Source: a bacterium (GTDB lineage Bacteria > Armatimonadota > Zipacnadia > Zipacnadales > UBA11051). From it: DNA of 64,000 bases. Of the stretch, positions 4,685 through 49,629 are shown piece after piece (positions within the stretch are counted from its first letter, which is position 1; each line of letters begins with the position of its first letter). The stretch spans positions 124,001 to 188,000 of the forward strand of contig JAUVVY010000001.1 in the NCBI GenBank assembly GCA_030604405.1. The letters are read 5' to 3'. Position numbers and translations under genes: made by a program. Under the pieces are notes generated by a model, which saw only the letters and a program-made list of their open reading frames with translations, made no database searches and was not told where the DNA came from.

Positions 4685-4702
4685 CGTCGCAGGAGGTGGA
4701 AT

Positions 4703-5053
4703 ATGCCGCGCCATGACCCCCTGGTTCGTGTGCGTCACATGCTGGACTACGCGCGGGAGGCCGTAGATATGGCCGCCAGCCGGAGCCAGGTCCAGTTGCA
4801 GCAGGAGCGGATGTTTGCGTTGGCATTGATCCGATGCGTGATAGTGATAGGCGAGGCCGCGCGGCGGGTTGATGGAGGCATACAAGGCCGCTACCGTGAC
4901 GTACCGTGGGGCGACATCACAGGAATGCACGATCACCTGGTTCATGACTATGATGTCATTAACTTCGACATCCTCTGGGATACCGTTACCATGGACCTCC
5001 CGCCGCTGATTGAGCAGCTTGAGCGCATCCTGGCTGCAGAAGAAGCGGATTGA
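4703..5053 (+). CDS. HepT-like protein (DUF86), orphan
   Basis: The 116 residues match HepT/DUF86, the toxin half of MNT-HepT systems: a helical HEPN-fold protein with a C-terminal region ending F-D-I-L-W-D-T-V...L-P-P-L. The family RNase/AMPylation motif RX4HXY appears as H76-D-H-L-V-H81-D-Y83, so the arginine is replaced by histidine. The partner nucleotidyltransferase, normally immediately adjacent, is absent: alr lies 18 nt upstream and an opposite-strand gene lies downstream. GGAGG precedes the ATG. It may be a degenerate or repurposed HEPN protein cotranscribed with alr; toxicity is doubtful without experimental data. Confidence 0.75.
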   Translation: MPRHDPLVRVRHMLDYAREAVDMAASRSQVQLQQERMFALALIRCVIVIGEAARRVDGGIQGRYRDVPWGDITGMHDHLVHDYDVINFDILWDTVTMDLPPLIEQLERILAAEEAD

Positions 5054-5059
5054 TGCACT

Positions 5060-5079
5060 GCCGCTGTGACGCCAGCGGC
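5060..5079. terminator. Possible terminator hairpin after the HepT-like gene
   Basis: GCCGCTG (5060-5066) and CAGCGGC (5073-5079) form a perfect 7-bp stem with a 6-nt loop, 7 nt after the stop codon; it is followed by TTCT, not a full T run. It could end transcription of the alr-HepT pair. Confidence 0.45.
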
Positions 5080-5196
5080 TTCTGCCAGCTTGAGACCGCC
5101 AAGAGATAAAGCGCAAGGCGACACCAAGAATAGGTATACCGTCGCCGGAATCTGTGTAACGTTAGTTTGGCGCCACGCCGGAATTGTTTGCACCTT

Positions 5197-6069
5197 CTAT
5201 TTCATGACATCAGCGATGACTTCTTTTATCTCGTCCCGCATCTCTGGATCCTTCCTGATGGTTTCGTCTTTGTAGAAGCAAACTGCAATCGCGCCCCTGT
5301 ATGGGTTGTTGAATTCGGGAGAACTCATTTTCTTCTTCCAATAGGTGTATTGGACCCAGATACTTCCCCTTCGGTACTTGCCAAACGCAGCCATCTGGGG
5401 AACTACCTGATGTGTATGAGGATAGGTTGAAATAAACTTATCCCAAGTTCGTTCCATACTTTGTTGTATTTCCTCATCCGATTTGTCCAGGGCTGGATAG
5501 CAGTCGAAAAGCAAGAGGTCGTGAGTTTTATCGGAAAAGGCATTCTTCCAGCCAGGATATTGATTATCTGGGAAATCATCGGCTTCGGTCTGGTCGAACA
5601 TTTCCATTACTGGATGATTTTGTTTATCTGGATCATACTTTCTTACTGTTCTGTAGAATCGTATTCTTTCGTCTATTGGTGGATTAGTTATGTCCGGCTC
5701 GTGCCCCAATTGGTCGCACCAATAACCTCCACAGCCAGCTCTATCTTTCCACTCCTCCACATGTCGCGTTATCTCAGCCTCTGTCGGATAACCGTACTGT
5801 CCTCTAATGTTGACAAAAACCTTCATGCCAAGCCTTTCAGCCTCATCGTAATCAGGCCAGCCAAAACGATTCCCATAGAAGTGAGTTCCGCCCAGTTCCT
5901 TCCACATCTCTTCACAACCTGGAAGACAAGTGCCTAATATCGCCATCTTTCTTATCTCCACAGGCGGTTTGACTTGCCCTGCTTTTCCGGCCAGAGATGC
6001 CAGAGACCCGATCATCACGACAACACCAACTATGGTGCCGGCAATGTTTTTGCACCGCACTCTTCTCAT
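5197..6069 (-). CDS. Secreted TIM-barrel-like protein, lower GC
   Basis: A 290-residue exported protein: basic start MRRVRCK, hydrophobic core GTIVGVVVMIGSLASLAGKA, then a mature part with barrel-like strands (M-K-V-F-V-N-I-R-G, G-G-Y-W-C-D-Q-L-G-H-E, H-D-L-L-L-F-D-C-Y-P) reminiscent of putative glycoside hydrolase barrels. I cannot name the family. D and E residues at strand ends are plausible catalytic groups but this is inference. AGGAG lies directly before ATG 6069, leaving almost no spacing; the in-frame GTG three codons later has better spacing. The gene is visibly richer in A+T than its neighbours, hinting at horizontal transfer. Confidence 0.6.
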   Translation of the reverse strand: MRRVRCKNIAGTIVGVVVMIGSLASLAGKAGQVKPPVEIRKMAILGTCLPGCEEMWKELGGTHFYGNRFGWPDYDEAERLGMKVFVNIRGQYGYPTEAEITRHVEEWKDRAGCGGYWCDQLGHEPDITNPPIDERIRFYRTVRKYDPDKQNHPVMEMFDQTEADDFPDNQYPGWKNAFSDKTHDLLLFDCYPALDKSDEEIQQSMERTWDKFISTYPHTHQVVPQMAAFGKYRRGSIWVQYTYWKKKMSSPEFNNPYRGAIAVCFYKDETIRKDPEMRDEIKEVIADVMK

Positions 6070-6284
6070 CTCCTGGGTCGTCTTTGAATTCCGAATTCAC
6101 CTGAGATTACATAGCCACATTCGACGCTATTCGCTTCATGAGCCGTTCGTCGGGCCATCTCTCGGCGCAGCTTCTTCCACTTGGCAATCATTGGGTCGTC
6201 TATACAATCTCCCTACAACTACGCTGCCCGCCGAGTAGCCATCTTTTGGGCCTTCGTGGGTCGAGTGAGGTCTCCTGAGGCGGG

Positions 6285-6347
6285 TCAGGCGCGGCGAACG
6301 AGGGCGATGTTCTCCAGTGTGAACGGATATGCTTTGCGGCCCCCAGG
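6285..6347 (-). pseudogene. Remnant of a DUF2283 gene (C-terminal tail)
   Basis: On the minus strand this stretch reads K-A-Y-P-F-T-L-E-N-I-A-L-V-R-R-A and then TGA. The core T-L-E-N-I-A-L matches the tail of the intact DUF2283 protein at 7239-7493, and 23 bp are identical in DNA (6300-6322 and 7290-7312). No DUF2283 start or body precedes it; the sequence upstream is the end of the metalloprotease gene in another frame. It looks like the leftover of a duplicated copy. The rest of 6070-6284 shows no gene. Confidence 0.55.
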
Positions 6348-6354
6348 ACAAGCG

Positions 6355-7242
6355 TCAAAGCTCGGCCAGTGTCTGCTTGACGCGGCTGCCCACTTCTTCG
6401 GCGGTCAGTAGGGCAATCTCCTCCAACTTGGCGCTTTCCTCCCATGCGAGTATGACCTCATGCCCCAGGAAGTACCCACATTGGTGCTGTCCGCAGATAT
6501 TGTACTCAGGCCAGGAACCGAAGAAGTCGTAAACGGCCTCCCCTGCCGCAACGGTCTTGAGGTACTCTGTCGCCAGCCACGACCGCCGCTCAGTACACCA
6601 CGAAAGCCACGCGTCCTGTCCGTGCTGCATGTGCCAGCTATCGCTACCCCCGAACACGTGCTCGCATCGCTGGGCAAAGCCCTCCGTGTAGAGATCCCAG
6701 AAGGGGCCCGTGCCGTCTGGCAGTTGGCAACGCGTGCGCAGATGGCTGAGGAGCAGATGCCCAAGCTCGTGTGCCACGAGACCGGTCAGCACGCCGGGGG
6801 ATGTCCACCCGCACTCGACAATCGTATCCAGTCCCAAGAGGCACGCCGGAGTGCCCTGATAGGAAGTCGCCCAGCCGCCGTAGCCGATGGCAAGAATGAC
6901 GAAGCAGACGTCGAGGTCCAGCCCGGATACTGCCTGCTGTGCCTGCAGGTAGGTCGGTTCGATGCAATCCAGCAGGTGGCCGTATGCTTCAGTCATCAAG
7001 GGCACTCGCTGTGGCAAGAACGGAAAGACCCTCTCTCCGAGGACTTGCCGCCACTGCAGACCCTCTTCGACGTAGCTGTCATTCAGCTTCGCGGCCAACA
7101 CCGGCCACTCGGCGTGGAATTGCGCAAGCCAGGCTTCGATCTTGGCCTGGAGTGGCTGGCCTTGCACACGTCCCCAGAGCTCCAGAAACGACGGGAACGT
7201 GTCAACTACGGTACATCTCGAAGTCGGCCTGTGTTCCATCAT
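6355..7242 (-). CDS. Putative zinc metalloprotease (HELGH)
   Basis: A 295-residue protein with a gluzincin-type zinc site: H158-E-L-G-H162 on a predicted helix (TGLVAHELGHLLLSHL), and a possible third ligand E187 in D-L-Y-T-E-G-F-A-Q about 25 residues later. This arrangement matches DUF2268-like putative proteases. There is no signal peptide, so the enzyme should act in the cytoplasm; its substrate is unknown. The start ATGATG overlaps the TGA of the DUF2283 gene (7239-7242), so translation is coupled to it. GGAGGGG inside the upstream gene is the RBS. Confidence 0.7.
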   Translation of the reverse strand: MMEHRPTSRCTVVDTFPSFLELWGRVQGQPLQAKIEAWLAQFHAEWPVLAAKLNDSYVEEGLQWRQVLGERVFPFLPQRVPLMTEAYGHLLDCIEPTYLQAQQAVSGLDLDVCFVILAIGYGGWATSYQGTPACLLGLDTIVECGWTSPGVLTGLVAHELGHLLLSHLRTRCQLPDGTGPFWDLYTEGFAQRCEHVFGGSDSWHMQHGQDAWLSWCTERRSWLATEYLKTVAAGEAVYDFFGSWPEYNICGQHQCGYFLGHEVILAWEESAKLEEIALLTAEEVGSRVKQTLAEL

Positions 7243-7493
7243 GTCCCCTCCGCCCGGGGCTTCAGGGCAATTCTGCTACGCGGGCGGGTGAGGGCGATGT
7301 TCTCCAGTGTGATCTGACGGAAAGGCTCCGTGTCGCCAAGGCATGCTGTGGCATCCAGAATCTCAATGCCAACCAAGCGCCCTTCAGCGTCCAGGTCAAC
7401 CGCGATTCCCTCTCCCAACTCCTTGGTGGTTACTGTCGTTTCCCGAAAGCGGATGTAGAGCGCGTCAACCTCTGCATCGTATGTGATCCTCAT
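7239..7493 (-). CDS. DUF2283 protein
   Basis: An 84-residue protein with the DUF2283 signature: M-R-I-T-Y-D-x-E-V-D-A-L-Y-I-R-F at the N-terminus, then G-I-A-V-D-L-D-x-E-G-R-L-V-G-I-E-I-L-D-A, ending in a tail after L-E-N-I-A-L. DUF2283 proteins are small beta-rich cytoplasmic proteins of unknown role, often beside other small stress or toxin-antitoxin genes. GAGGAAG precedes the ATG. The stop overlaps the start of the HELGH protease, forming a two-gene unit. A regulatory or partner role for the protease is inferred from the overlap only. Confidence 0.85.
   Translation of the reverse strand: MRITYDAEVDALYIRFRETTVTTKELGEGIAVDLDAEGRLVGIEILDATACLGDTEPFRQITLENIALTRPRSRIALKPRAEGT
7290..7312. repeat. 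23-bp direct repeat shared with 6300-6322
   Basis: The 23 bp here are identical to 6300-6322. In both places they encode, on the minus strand, the T-L-E-N-I-A-L part of DUF2283, marking an old duplication that spans the metalloprotease gene. Confidence 0.85.
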
Positions 7494-7536
7494 TGCCCCA
7501 CTTCCTCGTCATGGCACGGTGCCAGATGCAGTGATA

Positions 7537-8706
7537 CTACCTCAGCTTTTTCCACTCGTCAATCATGGCCAAGCCGCTCTCCCACGGCATGATGCTGTGC
7601 AAAGACGGGCAGGGGCTAATAATCAGGCCGGTCTTGCCAATGACGTGGAAGCACTCCCGCACCGCCTCGCGAGTCACCTCAGAGTCCGGATTCTGCAGAT
7701 GGTACGCGCTCGATGGCCCGATCCAGAAGCTCTTTGTCTCCTCCTGCGAGACCACGATCTCCTCAAGGTCGTGGTCCTTGTGGGCGATGTCCACGGTACG
7801 CAGGCAGTCGAGGTCCAAGCGCCGCAGATAGCCAAGCATCGGCATGATGCCGGTGTTGACGGTGTAGGGGACGACCTTGCCGGCGTCGTGGGCCGCTCTT
7901 GTCTCGGCCTGCAGGCGGTCGAAGAGGAAACTCTCGAGCATCGCCGGACTGTAGAAGTCGCAAGTCTCATAGAAGCCGTTGCGCCCCAGAATGTCGATCC
8001 CCAAGTCAATGGCTATCTCGACGCAGCGCATGTTGACCCTGTGGTCGAGGTCGAGGTAGGCGTCCACCAGGTCGGGAGCTTCCAGCATCTTCATGGAAAG
8101 CTGCGTCGGCCCGAAGGTTTGCAGCGCTCCCGACAGCCCCAGCCCGATGCTGCACTGCGTGGCAAGGCGGAATTCGTCGGCGATGCGCTTGCCCTCCATG
8201 AAGCTGAAACGGAGGCCGGCGAGCGTGTCGGGGCTGTCAACGGGACGGAAAACGTAGCTGAAGCACTCCAGGTCCTGCTCGTTTTCGATCCAGGATTTGT
8301 CGGCGTGGCCCGGGTTGAAATCGGTGAAAAAGGGGATTTCCAGCCCGTGCGGCCATCTTTCGTCATAGCGGATGGTTGAACTCAACTCACCCGCCGGCGT
8401 CTCATAGACCTTGTGGATGAGCTGCTTGTCGGCGTCGAACCAGGTCCGGCTCGATACCTCCGGCGCGGATTCGTAGCCGCCGCAACTGCACGATACGATG
8501 GGGTCCACGCCGAGTTCATTGACGTTGTAGGCAACTTCCTCGTACTGCGACGGCCCCCACGGGAAGTTGAAGCGCTTGCCGACACGTTGCGTGGGACTGA
8601 GCGGATTCCAGCCCGGCGAGCAGGGGACATAGTCCACCGGCTCGCGCCGAAATGCCGCCAGGACCCGTTCGCGTGAGGTCATCTCAGGCTTCTGTTGCGT
8701 CATCAT
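7537..8706 (-). CDS. URO-D superfamily protein lacking HxCG
   Basis: The 389 residues begin M-T-S-R-E-R-V-L-A-A-F-R-R-E-P-V-D-Y-V-P, the classic N-terminus of URO-D/MtaA-like proteins, and contain F-x-E-G-K-R and G-I-D-I-L-G-R-N-G barrel segments. At the strand where MtaA carries H-x-C-G this protein has V-N-T-G (in P-Y-T-V-N-T-G-I-M-P), so it cannot bind zinc the same way; one Cys lies near the C-terminus in S-P-C-P-S. It is not HemE. AGGAGG lies just before the ATGATG start. It is the last gene of a three-gene minus-strand set with the amidohydrolase and ceramidase-like genes. Confidence 0.75.
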   Translation of the reverse strand: MMTQQKPEMTSRERVLAAFRREPVDYVPCSPGWNPLSPTQRVGKRFNFPWGPSQYEEVAYNVNELGVDPIVSCSCGGYESAPEVSSRTWFDADKQLIHKVYETPAGELSSTIRYDERWPHGLEIPFFTDFNPGHADKSWIENEQDLECFSYVFRPVDSPDTLAGLRFSFMEGKRIADEFRLATQCSIGLGLSGALQTFGPTQLSMKMLEAPDLVDAYLDLDHRVNMRCVEIAIDLGIDILGRNGFYETCDFYSPAMLESFLFDRLQAETRAAHDAGKVVPYTVNTGIMPMLGYLRRLDLDCLRTVDIAHKDHDLEEIVVSQEETKSFWIGPSSAYHLQNPDSEVTREAVRECFHVIGKTGLIISPCPSLHSIMPWESGLAMIDEWKKLR

Positions 8707-8748
8707 TTGCCTCCTGTTGTGTGCAGGAATGCTGTGGGCGGGCCGTCA

Positions 8749-10035
8749 TCAGTCATCTCGTGCGCAGATGTCCTGCAGATACTTGCTGTAGGTATCAATC
8801 AGCTTCCTGTCCACGCCGGTCTTGAAGCACCCCTTCTGACGGAACTCGACAACGGAACCCTCGGCTTCGTAGCCGCCCTCTTCGATGTACCGGTCATCGG
8901 GGATATAGGCGGTCGCATCGCCATAACCGACAAAAATGACTTGCTTGTCGCCGAAGGCCTTCAGGACGTGTTGTTTGACGGGATAAGTAACCTCGCCACA
9001 GAGAAACGCGACATAAAGATCTTCACTGAGGCGCACGATCGCCGCGTGCAGAGGGACCTGGTCGCCGATGCTGTCATAGTGCTCCAATACCCATCGCGCC
9101 TCGTTCTTTTGCGGCGAGTCGGGCACATCGGGATCGTTGACGATGTTGGCGAAGAACTCCTTGGGGTACACTTCGATGTCCAGCGGCACGACGAACTGTC
9201 TGACGGCCAGGCGCAGGTCTATGGGCTGCAGCTTGTCGGCGCAGACGGCTCGCTTGACGTTGTTGGCCATCGCGGTTGCCATGTCGTCCAGTTCATCAAA
9301 TGTGCAGGCTTTCCAGACCTCGCCGTCCGCCGCGATCTTGGGCCGCGAGCAGCCGCCCGCTCCCTGAAAGAAGATCGCCGTGCTGCCATAGAACCCGGCC
9401 TCCAGCAACTGGCACATCCGTCCCGGGTATTCCGCCGATATCCACAAAGTTGCACCCAGCGTCACCGGATGGCATGAGTAGTTCAGGAGAAGGGCCTTGT
9501 GCGCCCCCTGCCGGTCGCGGATGCTCAGGATGCCGAGGGTATTGTCCTTGTCGCCCTCTGGGTTGGGCGCATTTGTCGGCTTACCGTTGCCAGGCCTGCG
9601 GCGATTCATGTTCCAGTCGCCCTCGATCACGCCATATTCGATCGTCCCCTCAAAGACGTTGATGCAGGCGCGATCAATGCAGCTCTTTGTTCTTTGGAGA
9701 AGGAACGCCTCGTAGGCATCGGAATGCTGACCGGGATCGTAACCAGTCACCGCCGGGCCGGCATGGGTGTGGGTGTATGAAACGATCAGGTTCTCGCCGG
9801 GGATGCCGTGCCGGCTCTCGATGTAGTCTCCCAGCGTCTCTGTCAGCGCATAGTCGTGAAACAGCAAGTCGAACGAAATCAGCACCGCCCGGTGCTTGCC
9901 ATCATCCATCACCACCGTCTTCACGTAGAGGTCGTCGTGGAGGCCAACGAAATGCTTTCCATACAGCGTGCCGTATCCGCCCATGTGCGTGATTACGTCA
10001 GGGGTAATCAGATCTCTCGCAACTCCAAACTTCAC
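8749..10035 (-). CDS. Neutral ceramidase-like hydrolase
   Basis: A 428-residue protein with features of the neutral/alkaline non-lysosomal ceramidase-like group: V-K-F-G-V-A-R-D-L-I-T-P at the N-terminus, V-S-Y-T-H-T-H-A-G-P (zinc-binding histidine loop) near residue 90, N-Y-S-C-H-P-V near residue 195 and F-Q-G-A-G-G near residue 230. In ceramidases these loops build the zinc site and the serine-containing G-D-N-S-P region; the latter is not evident here, and many bacterial relatives act on other esters or amides. The GTG at 10035 is chosen because AAGGGGG precedes it, rather than the TTG at 10062. No signal peptide is seen. Confidence 0.65.
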   Translation of the reverse strand: MKFGVARDLITPDVITHMGGYGTLYGKHFVGLHDDLYVKTVVMDDGKHRAVLISFDLLFHDYALTETLGDYIESRHGIPGENLIVSYTHTHAGPAVTGYDPGQHSDAYEAFLLQRTKSCIDRACINVFEGTIEYGVIEGDWNMNRRRPGNGKPTNAPNPEGDKDNTLGILSIRDRQGAHKALLLNYSCHPVTLGATLWISAEYPGRMCQLLEAGFYGSTAIFFQGAGGCSRPKIAADGEVWKACTFDELDDMATAMANNVKRAVCADKLQPIDLRLAVRQFVVPLDIEVYPKEFFANIVNDPDVPDSPQKNEARWVLEHYDSIGDQVPLHAAIVRLSEDLYVAFLCGEVTYPVKQHVLKAFGDKQVIFVGYGDATAYIPDDRYIEEGGYEAEGSVVEFRQKGCFKTGVDRKLIDTYSKYLQDICARDD

Positions 10036-10092
10036 AATGCAGCCCCCTTCTTCTCCGGGCAAGCTGAGCCCGGCGCTCGTCCGTGGGTTTTC

Positions 10093-10941
10093 CTACTCGA
10101 TGTCGAAAACGCGTAGTGCGTTGCCCTCGGCTATCTTGTCGAAGCACTGCTGCGATATCTTGCCGTCGGCCAGAGCAGCGCGCAGGAAGCGGGCGTGCTC
10201 GATCTTGTCCTCTTCGATCTGGCTGGTGTGGCAGATGTCGGTGCCGAAGAAGAGCTTATCCTGAAAGCGCTCCATGAACTCGTAGCCAAATTCGGGGTCG
10301 CGGGTCAGGGCGTTGTAGCCGCTGCCGGCCGAGATGTCAGCATAGGCATTCGGGTATTCCTCGAAGAGCCGGGGTATCGCGCCACCGTCTGTGACCGGTC
10401 CGGTCGCCGGCTGCTGCAGGTCCTCCCAGTCGCCGGAGATGTTCGGCCAGAAGCCCGGCCCGTGACCGATGAAAGCCGTGTCCTTGAACTTCCTTATCAT
10501 CTTTTCGAAGCGCGGCAGGCCCACCTCGTCCCGGGTGCGCAGAGAGTCCTGGTGGAAGATGATGGGAATCTCCAGCTTGCCACACGCCTCGTAGATTGCC
10601 TGCAGACGCGGGTCGTCGGCGTAGAGCCCGGACATGCACTCGCCGAAGCCCTTGCAGCCGCGCTCCTTGTACTGCTCGACAATGCGGTGGAAGGGCACCG
10701 AGGCGTCAGACTGGAGCCGGCGCGGATCCACGTTCATGAAGGGGATGAAGCGGTCCGGGTACTGCTCGCACACCTCCAGTATGTACCAGGTTGTTACATA
10801 ATAGGCCGTCTCCTCCGGGTTCTCAATGGGGTGAAGCGCGGCCTTGCGAACGTCATTTGCGTCCATCCATTTGAGCACAAGCTCTGGCTCGATGAACGGG
10901 TCGAAATACAGCTTTCCGCAATGGCAGTGAATGTCAATCAT
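10093..10941 (-). CDS. Amidohydrolase-2 family metal-dependent hydrolase
   Basis: The 282 residues match the amidohydrolase-2 (ACMSD-like) barrel: the metal motif H-x-H in I-D-I-H-C-H-C-G (residues 4-6), a third histidine in I-I-F-H-Q-D near 155, a further one in I-G-H-G-P near 185 and the catalytic aspartate in F-F-G-T-D-I-C near 240. The family decarboxylates or hydrolyses small carboxylic acids and lactones. GGAGG lies 6 nt before ATG 10941. It is first in the minus-strand set with the ceramidase-like and URO-D genes, facing the propeller array across a 205-bp divergent region. Confidence 0.78.
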   Translation of the reverse strand: MIDIHCHCGKLYFDPFIEPELVLKWMDANDVRKAALHPIENPEETAYYVTTWYILEVCEQYPDRFIPFMNVDPRRLQSDASVPFHRIVEQYKERGCKGFGECMSGLYADDPRLQAIYEACGKLEIPIIFHQDSLRTRDEVGLPRFEKMIRKFKDTAFIGHGPGFWPNISGDWEDLQQPATGPVTDGGAIPRLFEEYPNAYADISAGSGYNALTRDPEFGYEFMERFQDKLFFGTDICHTSQIEEDKIEHARFLRAALADGKISQQCFDKIAEGNALRVFDIE

Positions 10942-11146
10942 GATGTCCTCCAGATGCTTTTTCTTCCAACGGCCCGTTCATATTCCTCGCCTGCGGCAGC
11001 AGATTCCTGCAACGACGGGGCATCAACGCAACTATTTTCCGAGACGAACTACAGGCCAGGCGGCCAACTTCACTCCTGCGCCGACGCTGCCCAGATGTGC
11101 GATTGCGGAGTCCGGGAGCGAACCAAAATGAAATGCGGAGGTCTGC

Positions 11147-11410
11147 GTGCCTTTTCTGTCCAATGATTCCAGCAGATACTCGACTGGCGCGCCGGAGGAG
11201 GACAAGGCAATCGCCGAGGGAAGGATGGAGGGGCCGGAGCGCGATACCATCTCCACACAGGATTATTGCCGCCGGGCGCTGCGCTGGTACGAGGCCGGGG
11301 CCGATGGAGTGCATATCTTCAATAACTACAATGATCCAGGTATTGAAATCCTGCGGTTGCTGGGCGACCCTGACAAGTGCCGGCAGGTCGTTGACCGGGC
11401 GTCCGACTAA
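11147..11410 (+). pseudogene. C-terminal fragment of a glycosidase-like gene
   Basis: An 87-codon ORF from GTG 11147 (GGAGG at 11137-11141) encoding Y-C-R-R-A-L-R-W-Y-E-A-G-A-D-G-V-H-I-F-N and L-R-L-L-G-D-P-D-K-C. This resembles the last strand and helix of TIM-barrel putative glycoside hydrolases, where G-A-D-G-I-x-x-F-N closes the barrel. The preceding 300 residues of such a protein are missing, so it is probably a truncated relic, although its RBS could allow expression. It ends 21 nt before the first propeller gene. Confidence 0.5.
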
Positions 11411-11431
11411 TCAGTCGAAGGAGAGGCTGTT

Positions 11432-12502
11432 ATGTCCTATCCATTGAACATTCCTGACGGCGCGTATCATATCGTAACCGCACCGGAGCACTGCGCGTGG
11501 CCGAACCTGACGCTGCTGCCGAATGGTGAGATAGGTGCGGTCATTTTCAACCAACCCAGCCACGGGAGGCTCGAGGGTGACGTAGAATTGTGGGTCAGCA
11601 ACGACGGCGGCGACATCTGGGCGATGCGGAGCCAGATCACGCAGCACGAAGCTGGCACCGTCCGCATGAACGTGGCCGCCGGCCTCAACCAGAAAGGTGA
11701 ACTGGTCGTCCTGTGCTCCGGCTGAGACCTGTCCAGAGGCACTGCCGAGTGGCCTTATGGGCCGTGCCTTTTGCCACAAGTGTGCGTATCCGGCGACAAC
11801 GGCCATACCTGGGAGGTTGTGGGGCAACTGCAGCCGCCAACAGAAAAGGGGCCATGTACCATCCCATTTGGCGACATCGTCATCAATGGTGAGGAACTGA
11901 TATGCAGCATCTACCACGGCGACAACAGGACATGGAACCAATCCTGGGTGCTGCGCAGCAAAGACGGTGGCCGCACGTGGGGCGATCGCAGTCTGATTGA
12001 CGGCGATAACCACGACGAAACCAGCCTGCTTATCACCGACAGCGGCAGATTGCTGGCCGCCCTGCGCTTGCTGCAGAGCGCCGTCCCGGAAAACGCAAGC
12101 AGCGCCGAGCGGCAGTCGGCTCCGCTGGTGCTGTACACATCCGACGACCAGGGCCGCACGTGGGAGCCGCAGCAATACCTCAGCCTGCCAGGCCAAGTGC
12201 CCGCACATCTGCTGCAGCTTGCCGACGGAACCATCCTGCTGACATACGGCAGCCGGATTTGGGAATGTCGCGGCGTCGTCGGAAGAATCAGCCAGGACGA
12301 TGCGCAAACCTGGTCGCGGCCCTTCACGCTCGTTGCCGGATTCATGCCGGGCAGTGACCACGGCTACCCGTCCAGCGTGCAGCTCGAAGGCGGCGATATA
12401 GTCACCGCCTACTATTGCAGCGCATCCCCATGGTACCAACGCTATCACATGGGCGTGCTGCGCTGGCATCTAGATATGATCAAGACCGTGCTGAGTGCGT
12501 AA
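11432..12502 (+). pseudogene. Sialidase-like propeller 1, interrupted by TGA
   Basis: First of four tandem copies. Reading straight through gives 356 codons in one frame, broken only by TGA at 11723-11725 (codon 98), where copies 3 and 4 have Trp in C-S-G-W. Asp-box motifs (S-x-D-x-G-x-T-W) are visible at several points, including S-G-D-N-G-H-T-W and S-K-D-G-G-R-T-W, as in BNR/sialidase six-bladed propellers. A good RBS (GAAGGAGAGG) precedes ATG 11432. After the stop the frame is intact for 259 codons, so the lesion is a single recent event, an assembly error, or a recoded site. No signal peptide. Confidence 0.8.
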
Positions 12503-12539
12503 GCTCTGCGCTGTGCTTGTAGGAAAGGATGAATTCGCA

Positions 12540-13646
12540 ATGGCTTATCAGCTTGGAATTCCACACGGGGCTTTTCATACGGTGACGGCTCCGGAGCACT
12601 GCGCATGGCCCAATTTGACCTTGCTGCCAAATGGTGACATAGCAGCCGTGATCTTCAACCAGCCCAGCCACGGGGCGATGGAGGGCGATGTGGAGCTGTG
12701 GGTCAGCGAAGACGAAGGCTATACGTGGGCGATGCGGAGCCAGATCACGCAGCACGAGCCCGGCACCAACCGGATGAACGTGGCCGCAGGCCTGAACCAG
12801 AAGGGCGAACTCATCGTGCTTTGTTTCGGCTATGACCTGGCGACGAGCTTCGACGGCACCCACCACGCGCACGATAGCTGGCTGCTGCCCCAGATCTGCA
12901 TGTCAACCGACAACGGGCACACCTGGGAGATCGTGGGCGAAATGCTGCCGCCCGCCGATGCGGACAACTGCGTCCCCTTTGGAGACGTCGCCGTCAACGG
13001 TGACGAACTGGTTGCGTGCGTTTATACCAGCCGTCGCACGTCCGAACGCCGCAAGAAGTATCCTTCCAGTCCATGGATCATGCGCAGCCCTGACGGCGGC
13101 CGCACATGGGGCGATGCGACCTGCATCGCTGCGGACAGATTCGGGGAACCGGCTCTGCTGATTGTGCGGGACGGGACGTGGCTGGCAGCCTTGCGGGTCA
13201 AGCAGTTTCCCGCCGATTATGAGCCGGAAGATGTAATGAATCGCGAGCGGCTGGTTTCCGGTCCGAACCTGTTGCTGTTTGCCTCCGATGATGCCGGCCG
13301 CACCTGGGAGCCGCGGCAGTACCTGAGCCTGCCCCAACAGCATCCAGCGCACCTGCTGCAGCTTGCCGATGACAGAATCCTGGTCGCCTACGGCAACCGC
13401 ATCTGCGAATCCTACAGGGTGGTTAGCCGAGTAAGTGAAGACGGCGGGCAGAACTGGTCCCGGCCCTTCACACTTATCGGCGGGCTAATGGATTACGACT
13501 GCGGCTATCCATCCTCGGTGCAAGTGGAGAACGGCGACATCGTGACAGCATACTACTCGAAATGCTCGCCGTGGTGCCAGCGCTACCACATGGGCGTGCT
13601 GCGCTGGAATCTGGACATGGTCAACACCGCGATGCTTGGAGCGTAG
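12540..13646 (+). CDS. Sialidase-like propeller 2 (intact)
   Basis: A 368-residue protein of the BNR/sialidase superfamily starting M-A-Y-Q-L-G-I-P. Repeated Asp boxes (S-E-D-E-G-Y-T-W, S-T-D-N-G-H-T-W, S-P-D-G-G-R-T-W, S-D-D-A-G-R-T-W, S-E-D-G-G-Q-N-W) mark five propeller blades. The R-I-P motif and obvious arginine triad of true sialidases are not evident, so the substrate is open. ATG 12540 is chosen over upstream ATG 12495 because AGGAAAGG precedes it and all paralogues begin here. It carries an insert of about 25 residues in the variable middle. No signal peptide, so probably cytoplasmic. Confidence 0.8.
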   Translation: MAYQLGIPHGAFHTVTAPEHCAWPNLTLLPNGDIAAVIFNQPSHGAMEGDVELWVSEDEGYTWAMRSQITQHEPGTNRMNVAAGLNQKGELIVLCFGYDLATSFDGTHHAHDSWLLPQICMSTDNGHTWEIVGEMLPPADADNCVPFGDVAVNGDELVACVYTSRRTSERRKKYPSSPWIMRSPDGGRTWGDATCIAADRFGEPALLIVRDGTWLAALRVKQFPADYEPEDVMNRERLVSGPNLLLFASDDAGRTWEPRQYLSLPQQHPAHLLQLADDRILVAYGNRICESYRVVSRVSEDGGQNWSRPFTLIGGLMDYDCGYPSSVQVENGDIVTAYYSKCSPWCQRYHMGVLRWNLDMVNTAMLGA

Positions 13647-13683
13647 CCTCTGCAGTGAACAGGCATGAAAGGAAGAAGCGAAA

Positions 13684-14748
13684 ATGGCTTATCAGCTTGG
13701 AATTCCGTACGGCGCTTTTCACACGGTGACGGCTCCGGAGCACTGCGCGTGGCCGAACCTGACGCTGCTGCCGAATGGGGAGATCGGGGCGGCTATCCAC
13801 AACCAGCCTAGCCACGGCGAGGTGGAAGCAGATGTCGAGTTGTGGGTAAGTGGCGATGGCGGCGACACCTGGGCGCAGCGCAGCCAAATTACGCAGCATG
13901 AGCCCGGCACTACCCGCATGAACGTGGCTGCCGGTCTGAACCAGAAGGCTAAACTGGTCGTCCTGTGCTCGGGCTGGAATCTTGACCGGTTCAACCGGAA
14001 GACCGCTCCCGACGATGTGCTGGAGGCCGTCGTGTGCATATCTACCGACGACGGCCACACGTGGGAGCAGACCAGCGTGTTGGAGCCGCCACCAGGCACG
14101 GTCGGCTTCACGCCGTTCGGTGACGTCAATGGCAGCGGTGACGAGCTGGTGGTCGGCGGCTATACACGAGGCTTTGAAGATGGCGAGATGGTGGCGACGT
14201 CTGCCCACATGTATCACAGCCTTGACAAAGGACAGACGTGGTAGTACGTCAGCACGATCGCCGCTGGCGACCACAACGAGGTCGACCTGCTGGTGCGGAA
14301 TGAGGGACCGTGGCTGGCCTCGGTGCGCATCGGGGACCGCGCCAGGCCGGATATAGACAGACGCAATAACCAGCCGTATATCGTCCTCCACACCTCTGAA
14401 GACCGGGGGCGAAGCTGGCAGGAGCAGTTCCGCCTGTCCTACCCGAACCAGCATACGTCGCATCTGTTGCAGCTTGCGGATGACAAGATCCTGCTCACCT
14501 ACGGGTGCCGCATGGACGAGCTGTTCGGCGTCATCGGACGGTTGAGTGATGACGGGGGCGAAAAGTGGTCGCGGCCGTTTGTCCTGGTTTCAGGCCTGCT
14601 CCACGGGGACTGCGGCTATCCGTCCGATGTGCAGCTCGAAAACGGTGACATAGTCACCGCCTACTACAGCAAGTCTTCGCCCTGGTACCAGCGCTATCAC
14701 ATGGGTGTACTGCGGTGGAATCTGACGATGGTGGACGTCGGGATTTGA
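13684..14748 (+). pseudogene. Sialidase-like propeller 3, interrupted by TAG
   Basis: Third tandem copy, 355 codons in one frame, with TAG at 14242-14244 (codon 187) directly after an Asp box D-K-G-Q-T-W, where the other copies have Gly. The first 24 codons are nearly identical in DNA to copies 2 and 4 including silent sites. Everything after the TAG still aligns with the family up to the C-terminal H-M-G-V-L-R-W-N-L. RBS AAAGGAAG precedes ATG 13684. A split protein is unlikely because no RBS or start directly follows the stop; the next in-frame ATG is at 14509. Confidence 0.8.
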
Positions 14749-14817
14749 GCAGGCTGAACCCCAGACTTTCAGAAGCTTAGGTCAGCCAACAAATGCACTG
14801 GAAAGGAAGAAGTGAAA

Positions 14818-15900
14818 ATGGCTTATCAGCTTGGAATTCCGCACGGTGCTTTTCATACGGTGACGGCTCCGGAGCACTGCGCATGGCCGAACCTGACGCT
14901 GCTGCCCAGTGGCGAGATCGGCGCGGCTATCTTCAACCAGCCCAGCCACGGGGCGATGGAGGGAGATGTGGAGCTATGGGTCAGCGAAGACGAAGGCTAC
15001 ACGTGGGCGATGCGGAGCCAGATCACGCAGCACGAGCCCGGTACCAACCGGATGAACGTGGCCGCAGGCCTGAACCAGAAAGGTGAGTTGATCGTGTTGT
15101 GCTCGGGCTGGAATCTGGACCGCGCAGACCGTGATGTCGTTGAAGAGGATTGCCTGCTGCCCCAAGTGTGCATCTCCGGCGACAACGGCCATACCTGGGA
15201 AATAGTCGGCGAGGTGCCGCCGACGCCCGAATGCGCAAACTGCATCCCCTTCGCCGACATCATCATCAACGACGACGAGTTGGCCGTCGCCACTTACGAC
15301 GGTGAGTACGAAGAGGGGAACCTGGTGCGATGCTCGACATTCGTCATGCGCAGCAAAGACCAGGGCCGCACATGGGGCGACTACAGCGCAATTGACCGCT
15401 ACGACCACACTGAGGCCGACCTGTTGATTGCGGCAAACGGCACATGGCTGGCCGGCGTCAGAACGCTCTTCGGCCCCACCGACCTGCGGCACACCCGGCG
15501 CAACTCGCAGCCGGCTCTGCTGCTGTACGCCTCCGAGGATGAGGGCCGCACCTGGGACCGCAAGTTCTGGCTAACTCACCCGAACCAACACCCACCACAT
15601 CTGCTGCAGCTTGCCGACGAAAAGATCCTGCTCACCTACGGCAGCCGCATGGATGAACTGCTTGGGGTGATGGGCCGTGTGAGCGAAGACGGGGGCAAGA
15701 ACTGGTCGCGGCCGTTCACGCTGGTGGGCGGCCTGCTGCATCGCGACTGTGGATATCCGTCAAGCGTCCAACTGGAAAACGGCGACATCGTGACGGCCTA
15801 CTACTCGAAATCATCGCCGTGGCACCAGCGCTACCACATGGGAGTGCTGCGATGGAATCTGGAGATGGTCAATCCCGATATGGGCAATGTCTGGGGTTAA
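14818..15900 (+). CDS. Sialidase-like propeller 4 (intact)
   Basis: A 360-residue member of the same family, with M-A-Y-Q-L-G-I-P-H-G at the start, the signature H-C-A-W-P-N-L-T-L-L, and Asp boxes S-E-D-E-G-Y-T-W, S-G-D-N-G-H-T-W, S-K-D-Q-G-R-T-W, S-E-D-E-G-R-T-W and S-E-D-G-G-K-N-W. ATG 14818 is preferred over GTG 14812 because all copies begin there and AAAGGAAG gives proper spacing. Over roughly codons 40-95 it is nearly identical in DNA to copy 2, while codons 100-170 have diverged strongly. Role is probably recognition or hydrolysis of a glycan; not proven. Confidence 0.8.
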   Translation: MAYQLGIPHGAFHTVTAPEHCAWPNLTLLPSGEIGAAIFNQPSHGAMEGDVELWVSEDEGYTWAMRSQITQHEPGTNRMNVAAGLNQKGELIVLCSGWNLDRADRDVVEEDCLLPQVCISGDNGHTWEIVGEVPPTPECANCIPFADIIINDDELAVATYDGEYEEGNLVRCSTFVMRSKDQGRTWGDYSAIDRYDHTEADLLIAANGTWLAGVRTLFGPTDLRHTRRNSQPALLLYASEDEGRTWDRKFWLTHPNQHPPHLLQLADEKILLTYGSRMDELLGVMGRVSEDGGKNWSRPFTLVGGLLHRDCGYPSSVQLENGDIVTAYYSKSSPWHQRYHMGVLRWNLEMVNPDMGNVWG

Positions 15901-15909
15901 AGGTGTGGA

Positions 15910-16680
15910 CTAGCTCTCTCGGATGGCTTGCAGGCCGCTTGCGGCCGCATCAGACAACAGCGAGAGATCAGACGAAAAGGCCATGAACAGCGCGCCGCGC
16001 TTGAGCCAGTTGATGGTGCTTTCCACCGTAAAGCAGTGCATGCCCGGCGCAACGCCGTGTTCCGCCGCGCTCTCGAAGATGTCGTCAATCGCGCTTACTA
16101 CCGTAGGATGGTCATACTGCCTCGGCAGGCCAAACGATAGAGACAGATCATTAGGGCCGATGAAGGTGGCGTCAATGCCCGGCACGCTGAAGATCTCGTC
16201 GCGGGCCTCCCAGCCCTGCTTGGTCTCCAGTTGCACCACGATGATATTGGCCTGATTTGCCTGTGCGGGGTAGTCGGGCGATGCAACTTTGGCATAATCA
16301 TCATGCGCCCCGCCCGCTCCCCAGCCGCGCGTGCCCTGTGGCGGGTACTTGAGCATCTCTACGATTGCTTCGGCCTCCTCCGGCGTCTCCACTCTTGGGA
16401 TAAGATTGCCCGACGCGCCCAAGTCCAGATAACGGGTCGGCCACTGTCCTTCAAATGCCGGTGCGCGGACGATGGCCGTATAGTCAATGTCCCGCGCCGC
16501 TTGAAAGAGCCATGACAGCGTCTCCACACCGGGCCGGGAATGCTCGGTGTCGAATATGACGAACTCGAATTCGCACTGCTGGGCGACGCGGCAAGCGGCC
16601 GGTGAGTGCAGATGCGAAAACATTGTGCCGATAACCGGCTGTCCGGCCTGGAGCTTCTCCTTAACCTGCAAGCTGTTCAT
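15910..16680 (-). CDS. HpcH/HpaI family aldolase 1
   Basis: The 256 residues match the HpcH/HpaI (2-keto-3-deoxy acid) aldolase family: G-T-M-F-S-H-L-H-S-P near residue 19, V-I-F-D-T-E-H-S near 43, G-A-S-G-N-L-I-P-R-V-E-T-P-E-E-A near 90 and I-G-P-N-D-L-S near 170. E and D of the V-Q-L-E and P-N-D segments bind the divalent metal. The enzymes cleave 2-keto-3-deoxy sugar acids to pyruvate plus an aldehyde. ATG 16680 is chosen over TTG 16683; AGGTG lies upstream. It converges on propeller 4 with only 9 nt between them. Confidence 0.85.
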   Translation of the reverse strand: MNSLQVKEKLQAGQPVIGTMFSHLHSPAACRVAQQCEFEFVIFDTEHSRPGVETLSWLFQAARDIDYTAIVRAPAFEGQWPTRYLDLGASGNLIPRVETPEEAEAIVEMLKYPPQGTRGWGAGGAHDDYAKVASPDYPAQANQANIIVVQLETKQGWEARDEIFSVPGIDATFIGPNDLSLSFGLPRQYDHPTVVSAIDDIFESAAEHGVAPGMHCFTVESTINWLKRGALFMAFSSDLSLLSDAAASGLQAIRES

Positions 16681-16856
16681 CAAAACACCTCGAATGGCGA
16701 TTCGCTGATCATACCTCAGGACGGCTCTGGCAATTCATTATATGAGTTCCCTCCGACCCCGCTAATACCTCCCGATGCAGGAGAAGACGTGGCCCGTGAG
16801 GAAACTGGATGGCGTCGATACAGCAAGCTTCACGAAGTCAGGGAGAGGTGAGCAAC

Positions 16857-18716
16857 ATGCAGACATGTTGCATGAACTTGTTTGTTATATTGATAGGAGT
16901 GAGCGTGATGAGTATGAGTCAGGCCGGAGAGTTCGTTGATCTGGGCAAACCGGTGGTGCGGGCTATGGTGCTGGGACAGATGGTGGGGCCGGACGAAAAC
17001 GGCGAGATGACAAAGCTGTATTTCGACTTCAACCAGACCGCCCCGCTTTTCATCGTGCAAGTGGACCCTGTGTCCGGAGAGAGCAAACAGTACGACGCCG
17101 AAGAGGGAGGCGGCGCGTGGGGCTTCATCGTCGGGCCGGACAACAAGATTTACCTGGGCACGTGCGGTCACGGCGGCGGTCATGTGCTGCGTTTCGACCC
17201 GACCCAGCCGGACGTGGGAATTGAGGACCTCGGCAAGCCGTCGCAGAGCGAGTCCTACATCTGGCAATTCACCATTGGCAAGGACGCCAAGACGCTATAC
17301 GGATGCACCTACCCCCAGGCCAAAATCGTCTCGTACAACACGGAGACCGGGGAGATGCAGGACCACGGGCGGATGAGCGAGACTGAGATGTACTCCCGAA
17401 CCATCGCCACCGGCACAAACGGCTGGATTTATACCAGCGTGGGCTTCGCCAACTACGACATCATCGCCCTCAATCCTGAAACCGGCGAGCATCACTCGGC
17501 CACGACGGCTGAGCAAAGAGCAGATCCCACCGTCAAGCAAATGGGCACAACGGTGTACAACGGAGCGGATGGCCACGCGTACGGGAGAGTCGGCAAGCAG
17601 TGGCTGCGGCTGATTGACGGCAAGGGCGAACCTATCGAGAAGAACGAGAAAGCGGAGCCACTTCGGCACGTGCTTGCCGATGGGCGGGCGCTGGTAGGAG
17701 CCGACGTCAGCGGGACATACACGCTCGAGGAGCCCGAGACCGGCGAGAAGACCACAGGCCAGTTCACCTATGAGGGCGCGGGCTGCGCTCCATTCGTCGT
17801 CGGCGTGGGGCCGGACGGGTGCATATATGGCTCGACCGCGATGCCGCTTCTGCTTTTCCGCCATGATCCGGAGACGGGAGAAAACGAGGATCTGGGCAAC
17901 CCGACAGCCACAGATGGCGAGATATACTCAATGCACGCTTTGGACGGGCTGCTCTGGGTCTGCGCCTACGGCAGCGCGTACCTTTCCAGCTACGACCCGA
18001 CCAGGCCGTGGAACTTCGGCAGCGAAGCGGATAATAACCCGCGCAATTACGGTCCGATGGGCGATGGACACCTGCGGCCGCGGGCGATGATCGTCGGCCC
18101 CGACAAGACGCTCTACATCGGCAGCCACCCGGCCTACGGGACACTTGGCGGGGCAATGGGCGTGTTCGACACGACACAGGGCAAAGTCATCGAGAACTAT
18201 CGCAACATCGTGCAGAACCAGTCCATCTCGGCACTAGCCTACCACGAGCAGAGCGGGCTGGTGTTTGGGGGCAGCTACATCGTCGGCGGCGGTGGCGCAA
18301 CGGCCACCGAGAAGGAAGCGATGTTCTACGTGTGGGATCCGGTAAAGAAAGAGAAGATCGAAGAGTTCGTGGCCAACCCGGGCGACACCAACGTGGCCTC
18401 GATGACGATTGCGCGCGACAAGGTGTTCTTCGTCACCCTCCCCTCCAATGCCCTGATCGTTTACGACATAGCCGAGCGGAAGGTCATTGATACGCAGCAA
18501 ATCGAATTCGGCCCGGCGCTCGAAATATCCCTGGGCCTGCACACCGATGGGATGATCTACGGGTTGACAAACACGTCAGTAATAAAGATAGATCCGGCGA
18601 CCCACGAGATCAGCGAAGTCGCCGAGTACGACGGGGGCATCAACTGCGGCTGGGCGATGACTGATGAGGGCATCTACTTCGGCTCCGGCGTGCATCTAAT
18701 CAAGTACGAGTGGTAG
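16857..18716 (+). CDS. Secreted beta-propeller protein
   Basis: A 619-residue exported protein: the signal segment MQTCCMNLFVILIGVSVMSM is followed by A-G-E-F, then many strand pairs with G-P-D-x-x-I-Y-x-G and Y-D-P-x-T-G-E motifs, as in SMP-30/streptogramin-lyase-like or WD40-like propellers. I count about seven blade-like units. No catalytic motif is evident; such proteins often sense or bind carbohydrate outside the cell. ATG 16857 is favoured over upstream ATG 16809 by GGGAGAGGTG and because it puts the signal peptide at the N-terminus. It heads a four-gene + strand operon running to 21155. Confidence 0.7.
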   Translation: MQTCCMNLFVILIGVSVMSMSQAGEFVDLGKPVVRAMVLGQMVGPDENGEMTKLYFDFNQTAPLFIVQVDPVSGESKQYDAEEGGGAWGFIVGPDNKIYLGTCGHGGGHVLRFDPTQPDVGIEDLGKPSQSESYIWQFTIGKDAKTLYGCTYPQAKIVSYNTETGEMQDHGRMSETEMYSRTIATGTNGWIYTSVGFANYDIIALNPETGEHHSATTAEQRADPTVKQMGTTVYNGADGHAYGRVGKQWLRLIDGKGEPIEKNEKAEPLRHVLADGRALVGADVSGTYTLEEPETGEKTTGQFTYEGAGCAPFVVGVGPDGCIYGSTAMPLLLFRHDPETGENEDLGNPTATDGEIYSMHALDGLLWVCAYGSAYLSSYDPTRPWNFGSEADNNPRNYGPMGDGHLRPRAMIVGPDKTLYIGSHPAYGTLGGAMGVFDTTQGKVIENYRNIVQNQSISALAYHEQSGLVFGGSYIVGGGGATATEKEAMFYVWDPVKKEKIEEFVANPGDTNVASMTIARDKVFFVTLPSNALIVYDIAERKVIDTQQIEFGPALEISLGLHTDGMIYGLTNTSVIKIDPATHEISEVAEYDGGINCGWAMTDEGIYFGSGVHLIKYEW

Positions 18717-18735
18717 GCGCAGGAGGTTTGAACAC

Positions 18736-19425
18736 ATGATACTGATAGCCTCAATGGCGCGACCGGAAGAATACGAGAAGGGCACTATGCCTAATGCCCT
18801 GAAACGCAAATTCGAGGAGTTGACCGGCACGCCAGTGCTCATGCAGCACTACAGCCAGATCAATCCCAAGTTGGTGGCAAGCCTGCCGATTGACGCTATC
18901 TTCATCACCGGCTCAGGAGTACCGTGGCCCGAAGTGGACCCGAGGAAGCTCGACGGCCTCTACGATGTGATGATGAATAGCGACATTCCTGCCCACGGCT
19001 CGTGCGCAGGACATCAGCTTCTGGGATTCTTTTTCAACGCGGAGGATTTCCACACGGTGACGAAGCTCGATGACGAATTCGTGCGCAGGCTGCGTCCCGG
19101 CGAGCCGGTCAGCGTGTCCGAGAAGTATCCGGGCTGGTACTGTCAAAGCGGAATGTATGAGATAGAGATCATCCGCGAAGACCCGATATTCGCCGGCTTC
19201 GGCGATACCATAGTTGTGGATGAAGGGCATTTCTGCGAAGTCAAGACGCTGCCGCCGGACTTTGTCCATCTGGCCCGGGATGACAACTGCGAAATCCAGT
19301 GCATGAGGCACAAGCAGCGGCCGGTTTACGGAGCGCAGTTTCATGCCGAGGCGTGGACCGAGAACTACGAGGACGGCAAGAAGTTCATGGAAAACTTCTT
19401 CCGCATCGCCGGGCTGATCGACTAG
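18736..19425 (+). CDS. Class I glutamine-amidotransferase-like protein
   Basis: The 229 residues have the class I GATase layout: I-D-A-I-F-I-T-G-S-G near residue 53, the nucleophile elbow G-S-C90-A-G-H-Q-L-L, and the His-Glu pair in G-A-Q-F-H203-A-E205. No synthetase domain is fused, so it is probably a free-standing hydrolase such as the gamma-glutamyl or peptide-type GATases. AGGAGG precedes ATG 18736, and the gene lies 19 nt after the propeller gene. With the nitrilase gene next door it suggests handling of amide nitrogen, perhaps from amidated sugars or amino acids; that link is inference. Confidence 0.75.
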   Translation: MILIASMARPEEYEKGTMPNALKRKFEELTGTPVLMQHYSQINPKLVASLPIDAIFITGSGVPWPEVDPRKLDGLYDVMMNSDIPAHGSCAGHQLLGFFFNAEDFHTVTKLDDEFVRRLRPGEPVSVSEKYPGWYCQSGMYEIEIIREDPIFAGFGDTIVVDEGHFCEVKTLPPDFVHLARDDNCEIQCMRHKQRPVYGAQFHAEAWTENYEDGKKFMENFFRIAGLID

Positions 19426-48590: not shown

Positions 48591-49629
48591 ATAATTGCAC
48601 GTCCACCATACCCAGGTCCCAGCGCAAAACGCCCACGTGGTAGCGATGATAGGAGGGATTCCAATTGTTGTAATAGGCCGTAACTATCTGGCCGTTCTCC
48701 AACTGCACACTGGACGGGTAGCCAACGTCAGTGCTTTGCGTGAAATCCCCGACAAGCTTGAATGGCCGCGACCAGCTTTCCCCGCCATCCTCACTTATGC
48801 GTCCGACTACGCCGCGGAATTCATTCATGCGGCTGCCGTAAGTCACCAGGATTCTTCCGTCAGCAAGCTCCAGCAAGCTGGCCGGGATTTGCTTGGGCGA
48901 AGTCAGGTACTGCTGCGGTGCCCAGGTGCGGCCGGCATCATCGGAGCTGAAGAGCAGCACATTTGCGCCACAGTCGGGCAGCGGCTCGTCGTCGGCCGGG
49001 AAGTGCGACAGGCGTACGGCGGCAAGCCATTTGCCCTGCCGCGTGATGAGCAGGTCGGTCTCGTTGAAGTTATCGGCCGCGATGAGGCTCGCGTCCCCCC
49101 AAGTACGCCCGCCATCACCGCTCCGCATTACCCACGCGTTGCCGAGGCGATACACGCTCACGACCAACTCGTCGCCATTCACGCAGATGTCACCATGCGG
49201 TACGCACGGTCTCTCCTCACCTTCAACGCGCACTCGCCCGGTCATCTCCCAGGTATGACCTTGATCGGTCGAGATCCACACTTGCGTGTCCAGAACCGGA
49301 CCCCACATCGGCTCCCCGTTGACCTCGATTAGCTCATGCCCGCTGACAAGTACGATCAGATCCCCGTCCTGATTAAGACCGGCGGCGACCATCAGGCGGT
49401 TAGTGCCCGGCTGGTGTTGCGTGATCTGACTCCGCAACGCCCACGTGTAGCCGCCGTCCTCGCTGACCCACAGTTCGATATCGCCTTCCATGCGGCAATG
49501 GCTCGGTTGGTTGTGGATGACGGCCCCGATGTCTCCGTTAGGCAACAGCGTCAGGTTCGGCCAGGCGCAGTGGTCCGGTGCCGTGATGATATGGTACGCG
49601 CCCTCCGGGATTTGAAATGTGTACGCCAT
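48589..49629 (-). CDS. Sialidase-like propeller 5 (dispersed paralogue)
   Basis: A 346-residue homologue of the array at 11432-15900, sharing the opening M-A-Y-T-F-Q-I-P-E-G-A-Y-H-I-I-T and the signature H-C-A-W-P-N-L-T-L-L-P-N-G. Asp boxes are S-E-D-G-G-Y-T-W, S-T-D-Q-G-H-T-W, S-G-D-G-G-R-T-W, S-D-D-A-G-R-T-W and S-E-D-G-G-E-S-W. The frame is intact. AAGGAGGG precedes the ATG. It lies about 33 kb from the array on the other strand and is more divergent in DNA, so the family predates the recent tandem expansion. Confidence 0.82.
   Translation of the reverse strand: MAYTFQIPEGAYHIITAPDHCAWPNLTLLPNGDIGAVIHNQPSHCRMEGDIELWVSEDGGYTWALRSQITQHQPGTNRLMVAAGLNQDGDLIVLVSGHELIEVNGEPMWGPVLDTQVWISTDQGHTWEMTGRVRVEGEERPCVPHGDICVNGDELVVSVYRLGNAWVMRSGDGGRTWGDASLIAADNFNETDLLITRQGKWLAAVRLSHFPADDEPLPDCGANVLLFSSDDAGRTWAPQQYLTSPKQIPASLLELADGRILVTYGSRMNEFRGVVGRISEDGGESWSRPFKLVGDFTQSTDVGYPSSVQLENGQIVTAYYNNWNPSYHRYHVGVLRWDLGMVDVQL

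What the first reader, a model, noticed from the sequence alone, without database searches (positions are those of the whole stretch)
11432..15900. Tandem propeller array with constant ends, variable middles and stop-interrupted members
Four head-to-tail sialidase-like genes share nearly identical DNA at both ends (codons 1-95 and the last 40), including silent sites, but differ strongly in the middle (about codons 97-170). Two of the four carry single in-frame stops. Conserved flanks around variable cores plus silent copies is the layout expected where cassettes exchange sequence by gene conversion, as in variable surface or recognition proteins. The proteins lack signal peptides, so the variation would alter an intracellular glycan-recognition module. 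Sequence facts are direct; the conversion model is inference.
Basis: partly seen in the sequence, partly recalled or inferred. Interest (0 to 1): 0.6.

Follow-up and report, generated by a model that had tools for sequence, protein, structure and literature searches.

The report
Tandem sialidase-fold genes with swapped cores
Four neighbouring genes for sialidase-shaped proteins in an uncultured bacterium keep their ends because selection holds the protein there, while their substrate-facing middles have diverged and, compared with a sister species, appear to have been replaced in place by occasional recombination; no dedicated shuffling system is shown.

Summary
The array is real: four head-to-tail BNR_2 genes (11432-15900), two with one in-frame stop each. 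The key claim, that the ends are nearly identical DNA including silent sites, is not true. The ends are 74-92% identical, and in five of six gene pairs silent sites are as diverged in the ends as in the middle. The constant ends are protein-level constraint: they form blades 1 and 6 of a six-bladed sialidase-fold propeller. The variable middle is the BC/DA loop face of blades 2-4.

Recombination nevertheless occurs. In a congeneric MAG (G001), the 3' end and intergenic spacer of the slot-1 gene switch sharply from slot-1 to slot-2 sequence. At two positional-orthologue slots (g3/b3; and the isolated gene at 48592-49629 against b4) the flanks are about 80-97% identical while the cores are far below orthologue level. 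g2/b2 has a smaller core anomaly. Donors are unsampled, so gene conversion cannot be told from unequal crossing-over with differential loss, or from horizontal replacement.

Best reading: a lineage-expanded family of probably cytoplasmic, probably enzymatic sialidase-fold proteins, with specificity loops diverging and gene bodies occasionally exchanged through conserved ends. A dedicated silent-cassette system is not supported.

The parts
11432..12502 (+). g1, BNR_2 sialidase-fold gene, slot 1; in-frame TGA at 11723-11725 (codon 98)
   Evidence: Orthologue b1 in G001 has Trp there but an 8-nt deletion near codon 33.
12540..13646 (+). g2, intact BNR_2 sialidase-fold gene, slot 2
   Evidence: Orthologue b2: ends 92-95% nt, centre dips to 62%.
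13684..14748 (+). g3, BNR_2 sialidase-fold gene, slot 3; in-frame TAG at 14242-14244 (codon 187)
14818..15900 (+). g4, intact BNR_2 sialidase-fold gene, slot 4; absent from the G001 array, where a URO-D-like gene stands
12651..12800 (+). tract in g2 (codons 38-87) nearly identical to g4 14929-15078, silent sites included (41/45): putative conversion tract
13687..13815 (+). tract in g3 (codons 2-44) close to g4 14821-14949 (92% nt, 32/39 silent)
13750..14650 (+). body of g3 not orthologous to b3 in the same slot of G001 (37-82% nt, falling and rising gradually) between flanks of 85-100%
   Evidence: (AU p=0.0136 and 0.0105 against a g3+b3 core clade).
12906..13320 (+). centre of g2 (about g4-codons 123-251; approximate limits) with excess silent divergence from its orthologue b2 (41/99 against 28/202)
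   Evidence: scan p=0.0015; three control pairs not significant.
48592..49629 (-). g5, isolated paralogue; G001 b4 stands at the same locus with a different gene body (from about codon 30 to about 40 nt past the stop)
   Evidence: (AU p=0.0056 at codons 196-265).
11132..11407 (+). short open frame just upstream of g1, conserved in G001; looks like the C-terminal remnant of a longer gene
   Evidence: Inferred.

Best explanation
A lineage-expanded family of sialidase-fold (BNR_2) proteins without an evident export signal: four in tandem and two dispersed in this Zipacnadia-like MAG, single-copy in other families of the order where present. SHOWN: silent divergence is not reduced in the ends of most pairs, so the constant ends (blades 1 and 6, which close the ring) are held by purifying selection on the protein; the variable middle is enriched in the BC/DA loops, mainly of blades 2-4; the sister-species array has a clear b1/b2 mosaic; and at two slots positional orthologues have non-orthologous bodies between orthologous flanks. 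INFERRED: the proteins are glycosidase-like enzymes with a conserved Glu/Tyr/two-Arg core and diverging specificity loops; the conserved start and 3' end give homologous recombination enough identity to replace gene bodies in place, by conversion, unequal crossing-over with loss, or incoming DNA; the stops are recent decay of redundant copies.
For: Silent sites equally diverged in ends and middle in five of six pairs. Variability in BC+DA loops against AB+CD loops p=2.7e-5 in genus paralogues, p=0.22 in single-copy relatives. AF2 propeller, pLDDT 87; best PDB matches 5hx0 and GH33 sialidases, Z 34-36. E199, R215, R277, Y313 invariant in 24 homologues. b1 tail: informative sites agree with g1, then almost all with b2 through the stop and spacer; triplet test p at its permutation floor, also significant on third positions. 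g5/b4 locus: about 79-97% flanks, 89% for codons 1-30, 37-73% in the body, 92% from about 40 nt past the stop. g3/b3. g2/b2 silent cluster p=0.0015. g1/b1 dN/dS 0.14, so the g1 lesion is recent.
Against: No donor core was found, so direction and mechanism are open. Apart from b1, third-position triplet scans do not exceed chance; PHI on third positions is only p about 0.01-0.04; all-sites tests also fire in the single-copy control. In the 97-195 segment g5+b4 is not rejected (p=0.11). Enzyme activity is untested and the first triad Arg is absent. Only two genomes carry the array and both are MAGs.
Confidence: 0.68

Rival explanations
1. Birth-and-death with hidden paralogy: the ancestor had more tandem copies at each locus and each species kept different ones. 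Apart from the b1/b2 event no core exchange is needed.
For: Copy number differs (four against three); core divergence is at paralogue level with near-saturated silent sites, as expected of old paralogues; no donor found in either MAG.
Against: The start of the gene at g3/b3 and g5/b4 stays at orthologue-level identity before dropping, so a junction inside the gene is still needed. g2/b2 is orthologous at both ends but anomalous in the centre.
Confidence: 0.2
2. One reading: a dedicated gene-conversion system in which stop-bearing copies act as silent donors to vary a recognition module.
For: Conserved ends, variable cores, two stop-bearing copies, some true tracts (g2-g4, b1-b2), variability on the loop face.
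Against: Silent sites in the ends are not homogenised in five of six pairs; no near-identical cores in two places; no sign of an expression site; the orthologue pair g1/b1 is stable along most of its length (90-95% nt); the g1 and b1 lesions differ, and a second G001 version of the start lacks the deletion.
Confidence: 0.07
3. Assembly or strain-mixing artefact: mosaics and stops come from joining similar repeats or strains in short-read MAGs.
For: G001 has about 8% contamination and 600 contigs and carries two versions of the array start at 93% identity; b4 is joined from two contigs through a 114-nt overlap.
Against: In G000 the array is inside one long contig; b1-b2-b3, and the 5' part of b4 with its flank, are each within single G001 contigs; the order of slots 1-2 agrees between the two assemblies.
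Confidence: 0.05

Closest known systems
GH33 sialidases / BNR_2 (PF13088) sialidase-fold proteins; nearest solved structure 5hx0 (Dyadobacter Dfer_1899, function unknown)
   Same: Six-bladed propeller with five Asp-boxes; Glu, two Arg and Tyr at sialidase-like positions; full-length structural match.
   Different: No Arg before the first Asp-box, so the first triad Arg is absent; no export signal evident; substrate unknown; 14-21% identity.
TRD exchange in type I restriction hsdS genes of Helicobacter pylori (PMC3077401)
   Same: Specificity-determining cores replaced at fixed loci by recombination in conserved flanking sequence.
   Different: There many strains show the same domains in different loci and positions; here no donor copy is known and only two species are compared.
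Silent-cassette gene conversion (pilE/pilS, vlsE, Anaplasma msp2/p44; PMC4534519, PMC2789410, found; details from general knowledge)
   Same: Conserved ends around variable centres, with some disrupted copies.
   Different: No expression site, no homogenised flanks at silent sites, no within-population switching shown, protein apparently not surface-exposed.

Membership tests
GH33 exo-sialidase | Six-bladed sialidase-fold propeller with Asp-boxes | tested here: met
   AF2 model with five Asp-boxes in the CD turns; Z 34-36 to GH33 structures.
GH33 exo-sialidase | Nucleophilic Tyr with partner Glu | tested here: inconclusive
   Y313 and E199 are invariant in 24 sequences. Profile alignment places E199 on a Glu of 5hx0 and 8t26 and Y313 in the GYP motif of 5hx0, but equivalence of Y313 to the sialidase Tyr rests on family knowledge, not on a residue-level structural alignment.
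GH33 exo-sialidase | Arginine triad that binds the sialic acid carboxylate | tested here: not met
   R215 and R277 are invariant, but no Arg is conserved before the first Asp-box, and P0002 has none before R66. That the first triad Arg lies before the first Asp-box is family knowledge.
GH33 exo-sialidase | Sialidase activity | not testable with these tools
   Needs an assay.
BNR_2 (PF13088) | Pfam model match above cut-off | tested here: met
   g2 59.5 and g4 58.1 bits against cut-off 31.4.
Silent-cassette gene conversion system | Flanks of the copies homogenised at silent sites | tested here: not met
   Five of six pairs show no significant reduction of silent divergence in the ends.
Silent-cassette gene conversion system | Donor and recipient share near-identical variable cores | tested here: not met
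   No core pair above about 69% nt except the same-slot orthologues g1/b1 and g2/b2, in the two MAGs.
Silent-cassette gene conversion system | Switching within a population | not testable with these tools
   Reads and isolates not available.
Recombining tandem multigene family | Mosaic sequence with definable breakpoints between members | tested here: met
   b1 tail and spacer of b2 type.

The most novel reading that the evidence does not exclude
The array and its dispersed copies form a reservoir from which the specificity face of a cytoplasmic glycosidase-like propeller is repeatedly renewed by in-place core replacement through conserved blade-1 and blade-6 ends: an hsdS-like modular exchange in a carbohydrate-active protein family of an uncultured phylum, with stop-bearing copies persisting as donors.
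Probability: 0.12. Interest if true: 0.65.

Novelty: new member of a known kind. Interest (0 to 1): 0.36.

Why it matters
It shows how constant ends and variable middles can arise from protein constraint alone, and that silent sites must be checked before gene conversion is inferred. It also gives a testable case in which enzyme specificity surfaces at fixed loci may be replaced whole between close bacterial species, which would matter for predicting substrate from gene position in uncultured degraders.

Tried and rejected
Nearly identical ends including silent sites: rejected by segment-wise synonymous divergence. PHI and triplet scans on all sites: significant in the single-copy control too, so not used as evidence; only third-position results and explicit breakpoints are relied on. 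Multiple-test support for the g2-g4 and g3-g4 tracts in the blind scan over 91 pairs: not reached (best p=0.01); g2-g4 is significant only in the test of ends against middle. Donor search for the swapped cores among the sampled paralogues of G000 and G001: none found. Conserved gene neighbourhood as a clue to substrate: none of the seven neighbouring genes recurs next to the homologues in other families of the order or other phyla. Stop codons as recoding: not favoured, since g3 itself ends in TGA, and b1 has Trp at the g1 TGA site; not tested further. Literature search for a described bacterial case of sialidase-family conversion: only the Trypanosoma cruzi trans-sialidase family surfaced.

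Full report
WHAT WAS CHECKED. The window is G000:C57:124001-188000 of a 4.37-Mb MAG in 96 contigs. Its close relatives are MAGs titled Candidatus Zipacnadia or candidate division WS1; Zipacnadia is a class of Armatimonadota described from anoxic sediments (PMC10290634). The four genes are present as stated, and two carry single in-frame stops (TGA 11723-11725; TAG 14242-14244). Two further paralogues lie in the genome: g5 at window 48592-49629 minus, and g6 on C91. In the order searched, other families have at most one copy of this subfamily at E<=1e-45; the same-genus G001 has five matches, G003 one, G002 and G004 none.

CONSTANT ENDS ARE PROTEIN CONSTRAINT. Nucleotide identity of the ends is 74-92%, not near-identity. 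Synonymous differences per site are about the same in ends and middle in five of six array pairs (0.49-0.60 against 0.57-0.62); only g2-g4 has low values in the ends (0.35 against 0.57, p=0.00075). dN is 0.03-0.13 over codons 1-96 and about 0.4-0.9 over codons 97-260 for the five pairs tabulated by segment. Real high-identity tracts exist: g2-g4 codons 38-87 (41/45 silent matches) and g3-g4 codons 2-44 (32/39), though neither survives a strict correction in the blind scan.

WHAT THE PROTEIN IS. Pfam BNR_2. AF2 on a 24-sequence alignment gives a six-bladed propeller, mean pLDDT 87.1, pTM 0.89. The best solved match is 5hx0 (function unknown, Z 36.3), followed by GH33 sialidases at Z 34-36. E199, R215, R277 and Y313 are invariant, at the positions of the sialidase Glu, two triad Arg and Tyr as judged by profile alignment and family knowledge. 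No Arg precedes the first Asp-box, so the first triad Arg is missing and GH33 membership is not claimed. The constant ends correspond to blade 1, the first two strands of blade 2, and blade 6, which closes the ring with the N-terminal strand. In the genus paralogues variability is concentrated in BC and DA loops against AB and CD loops (mean entropy 1.39 against 0.76, p=2.7e-5), mainly in blades 2-4; single-copy relatives show no such bias (p=0.22). The Asp-boxes lie in the CD turns, so the variable loops are on the opposite face, which carries the active site in sialidases (family knowledge).

COMPARISON WITH THE SISTER SPECIES. G001:C347 holds a syntenic array b1-b2-b3. Slot 1: g1/b1 are orthologous along the gene (90-95% nt by segment), dN/dS 0.14, but from about codon 340 through the stop and the spacer b1 agrees with b2 and not g1; triplet p is at the permutation floor, and significant on third positions too. 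Slot 2: g2/b2 ends 92-95%, centre down to 62%; silent differences cluster in g4-codons 123-251 (41/99 against 28/202, p=0.0015; three control pairs not significant; g1/b1 has a weaker cluster at codons 66-75, p=0.025). Slot 3: identity is 90-100% upstream and at the very start of the gene, falls to 37-82% in the body and returns to 85-88% at the end; a g3+b3 clade is rejected for both core segments (p=0.0136, 0.0105). Slot 4: g4 is absent and a URO-D-like gene stands there, after which synteny resumes. Isolated locus: G001 contigs C143 and C596 are collinear with window 52992-47043 and place b4 where g5 is. Flanks near the gene are about 79-97%, codons 1-30 89%, body 37-73%, and 92% from about 40 nt past the stop; a g5+b4 clade is rejected at codons 196-265 (p=0.0056) but not at 97-195 (p=0.11). 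b4 is joined across a 114-nt contig overlap, but its 5' flank and core to codon 298 are in one contig.

INTERPRETATION. Recombination between family members is shown for b1/b2 and strongly suggested at two further slots, through conserved ends. Whether by conversion, unequal crossing-over with differential loss, or incoming DNA cannot be decided, because no donor is known. Since g2/b2 core divergence carries matching silent divergence (dN/dS 0.21 with dS 1.0 at codons 141-215), it is not explained by fast protein change alone. The g1 and b1 lesions differ (a stop; an 8-nt deletion), and a second version of the array start in G001 (C287, 93% identical, probably a strain variant) lacks the deletion, so the broken copies look like recent, local decay. 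They may also be sequence errors, which reads would settle.

VERDICT. An ordinary cause for the constant ends, a structurally sensible variable face, and a modest but real recombination signal.

Noticed in passing
L083 (G037:C115:12000-31999), about 4950-19252: Same-order genome G037 has a tandem array of nine open frames with four to ten Asp-boxes each, three of them double-length; many begin with a signal-peptide-like stretch. A different, apparently exported subfamily expanded in the same way.
   Followed up: partly
window 16809-18716: A 635-aa gene without a Pfam match between the aldolase and the GATase; in the matching stretch of G001 there are two GATase genes in a row and no such gene (L060 5753-7325).
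   Followed up: no
L060 about 3642-4775: URO-D-like gene occupying the g4 slot in G001; the nearest G000 homologue is on another contig (C93, 59%), and G000 holds 42 matches to this protein, a large expansion.
   Followed up: partly
L049 and L048: g6 and its G003 counterpart c1 align at 80% over 1,073 columns that nearly coincide with the coding sequence, with no similarity found in the flanks, as if the gene moved alone; transposase-like frames resembling the IS3 family lie near g6 on C91.
   Followed up: partly
window 11432-11520; L047 end; L060 start: The two G001 versions of the slot-1 start differ, apart from the 8-nt deletion, mainly in a short patch near codons 6-16 that partly resembles b2, possibly a micro-conversion between strains.
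   Followed up: partly
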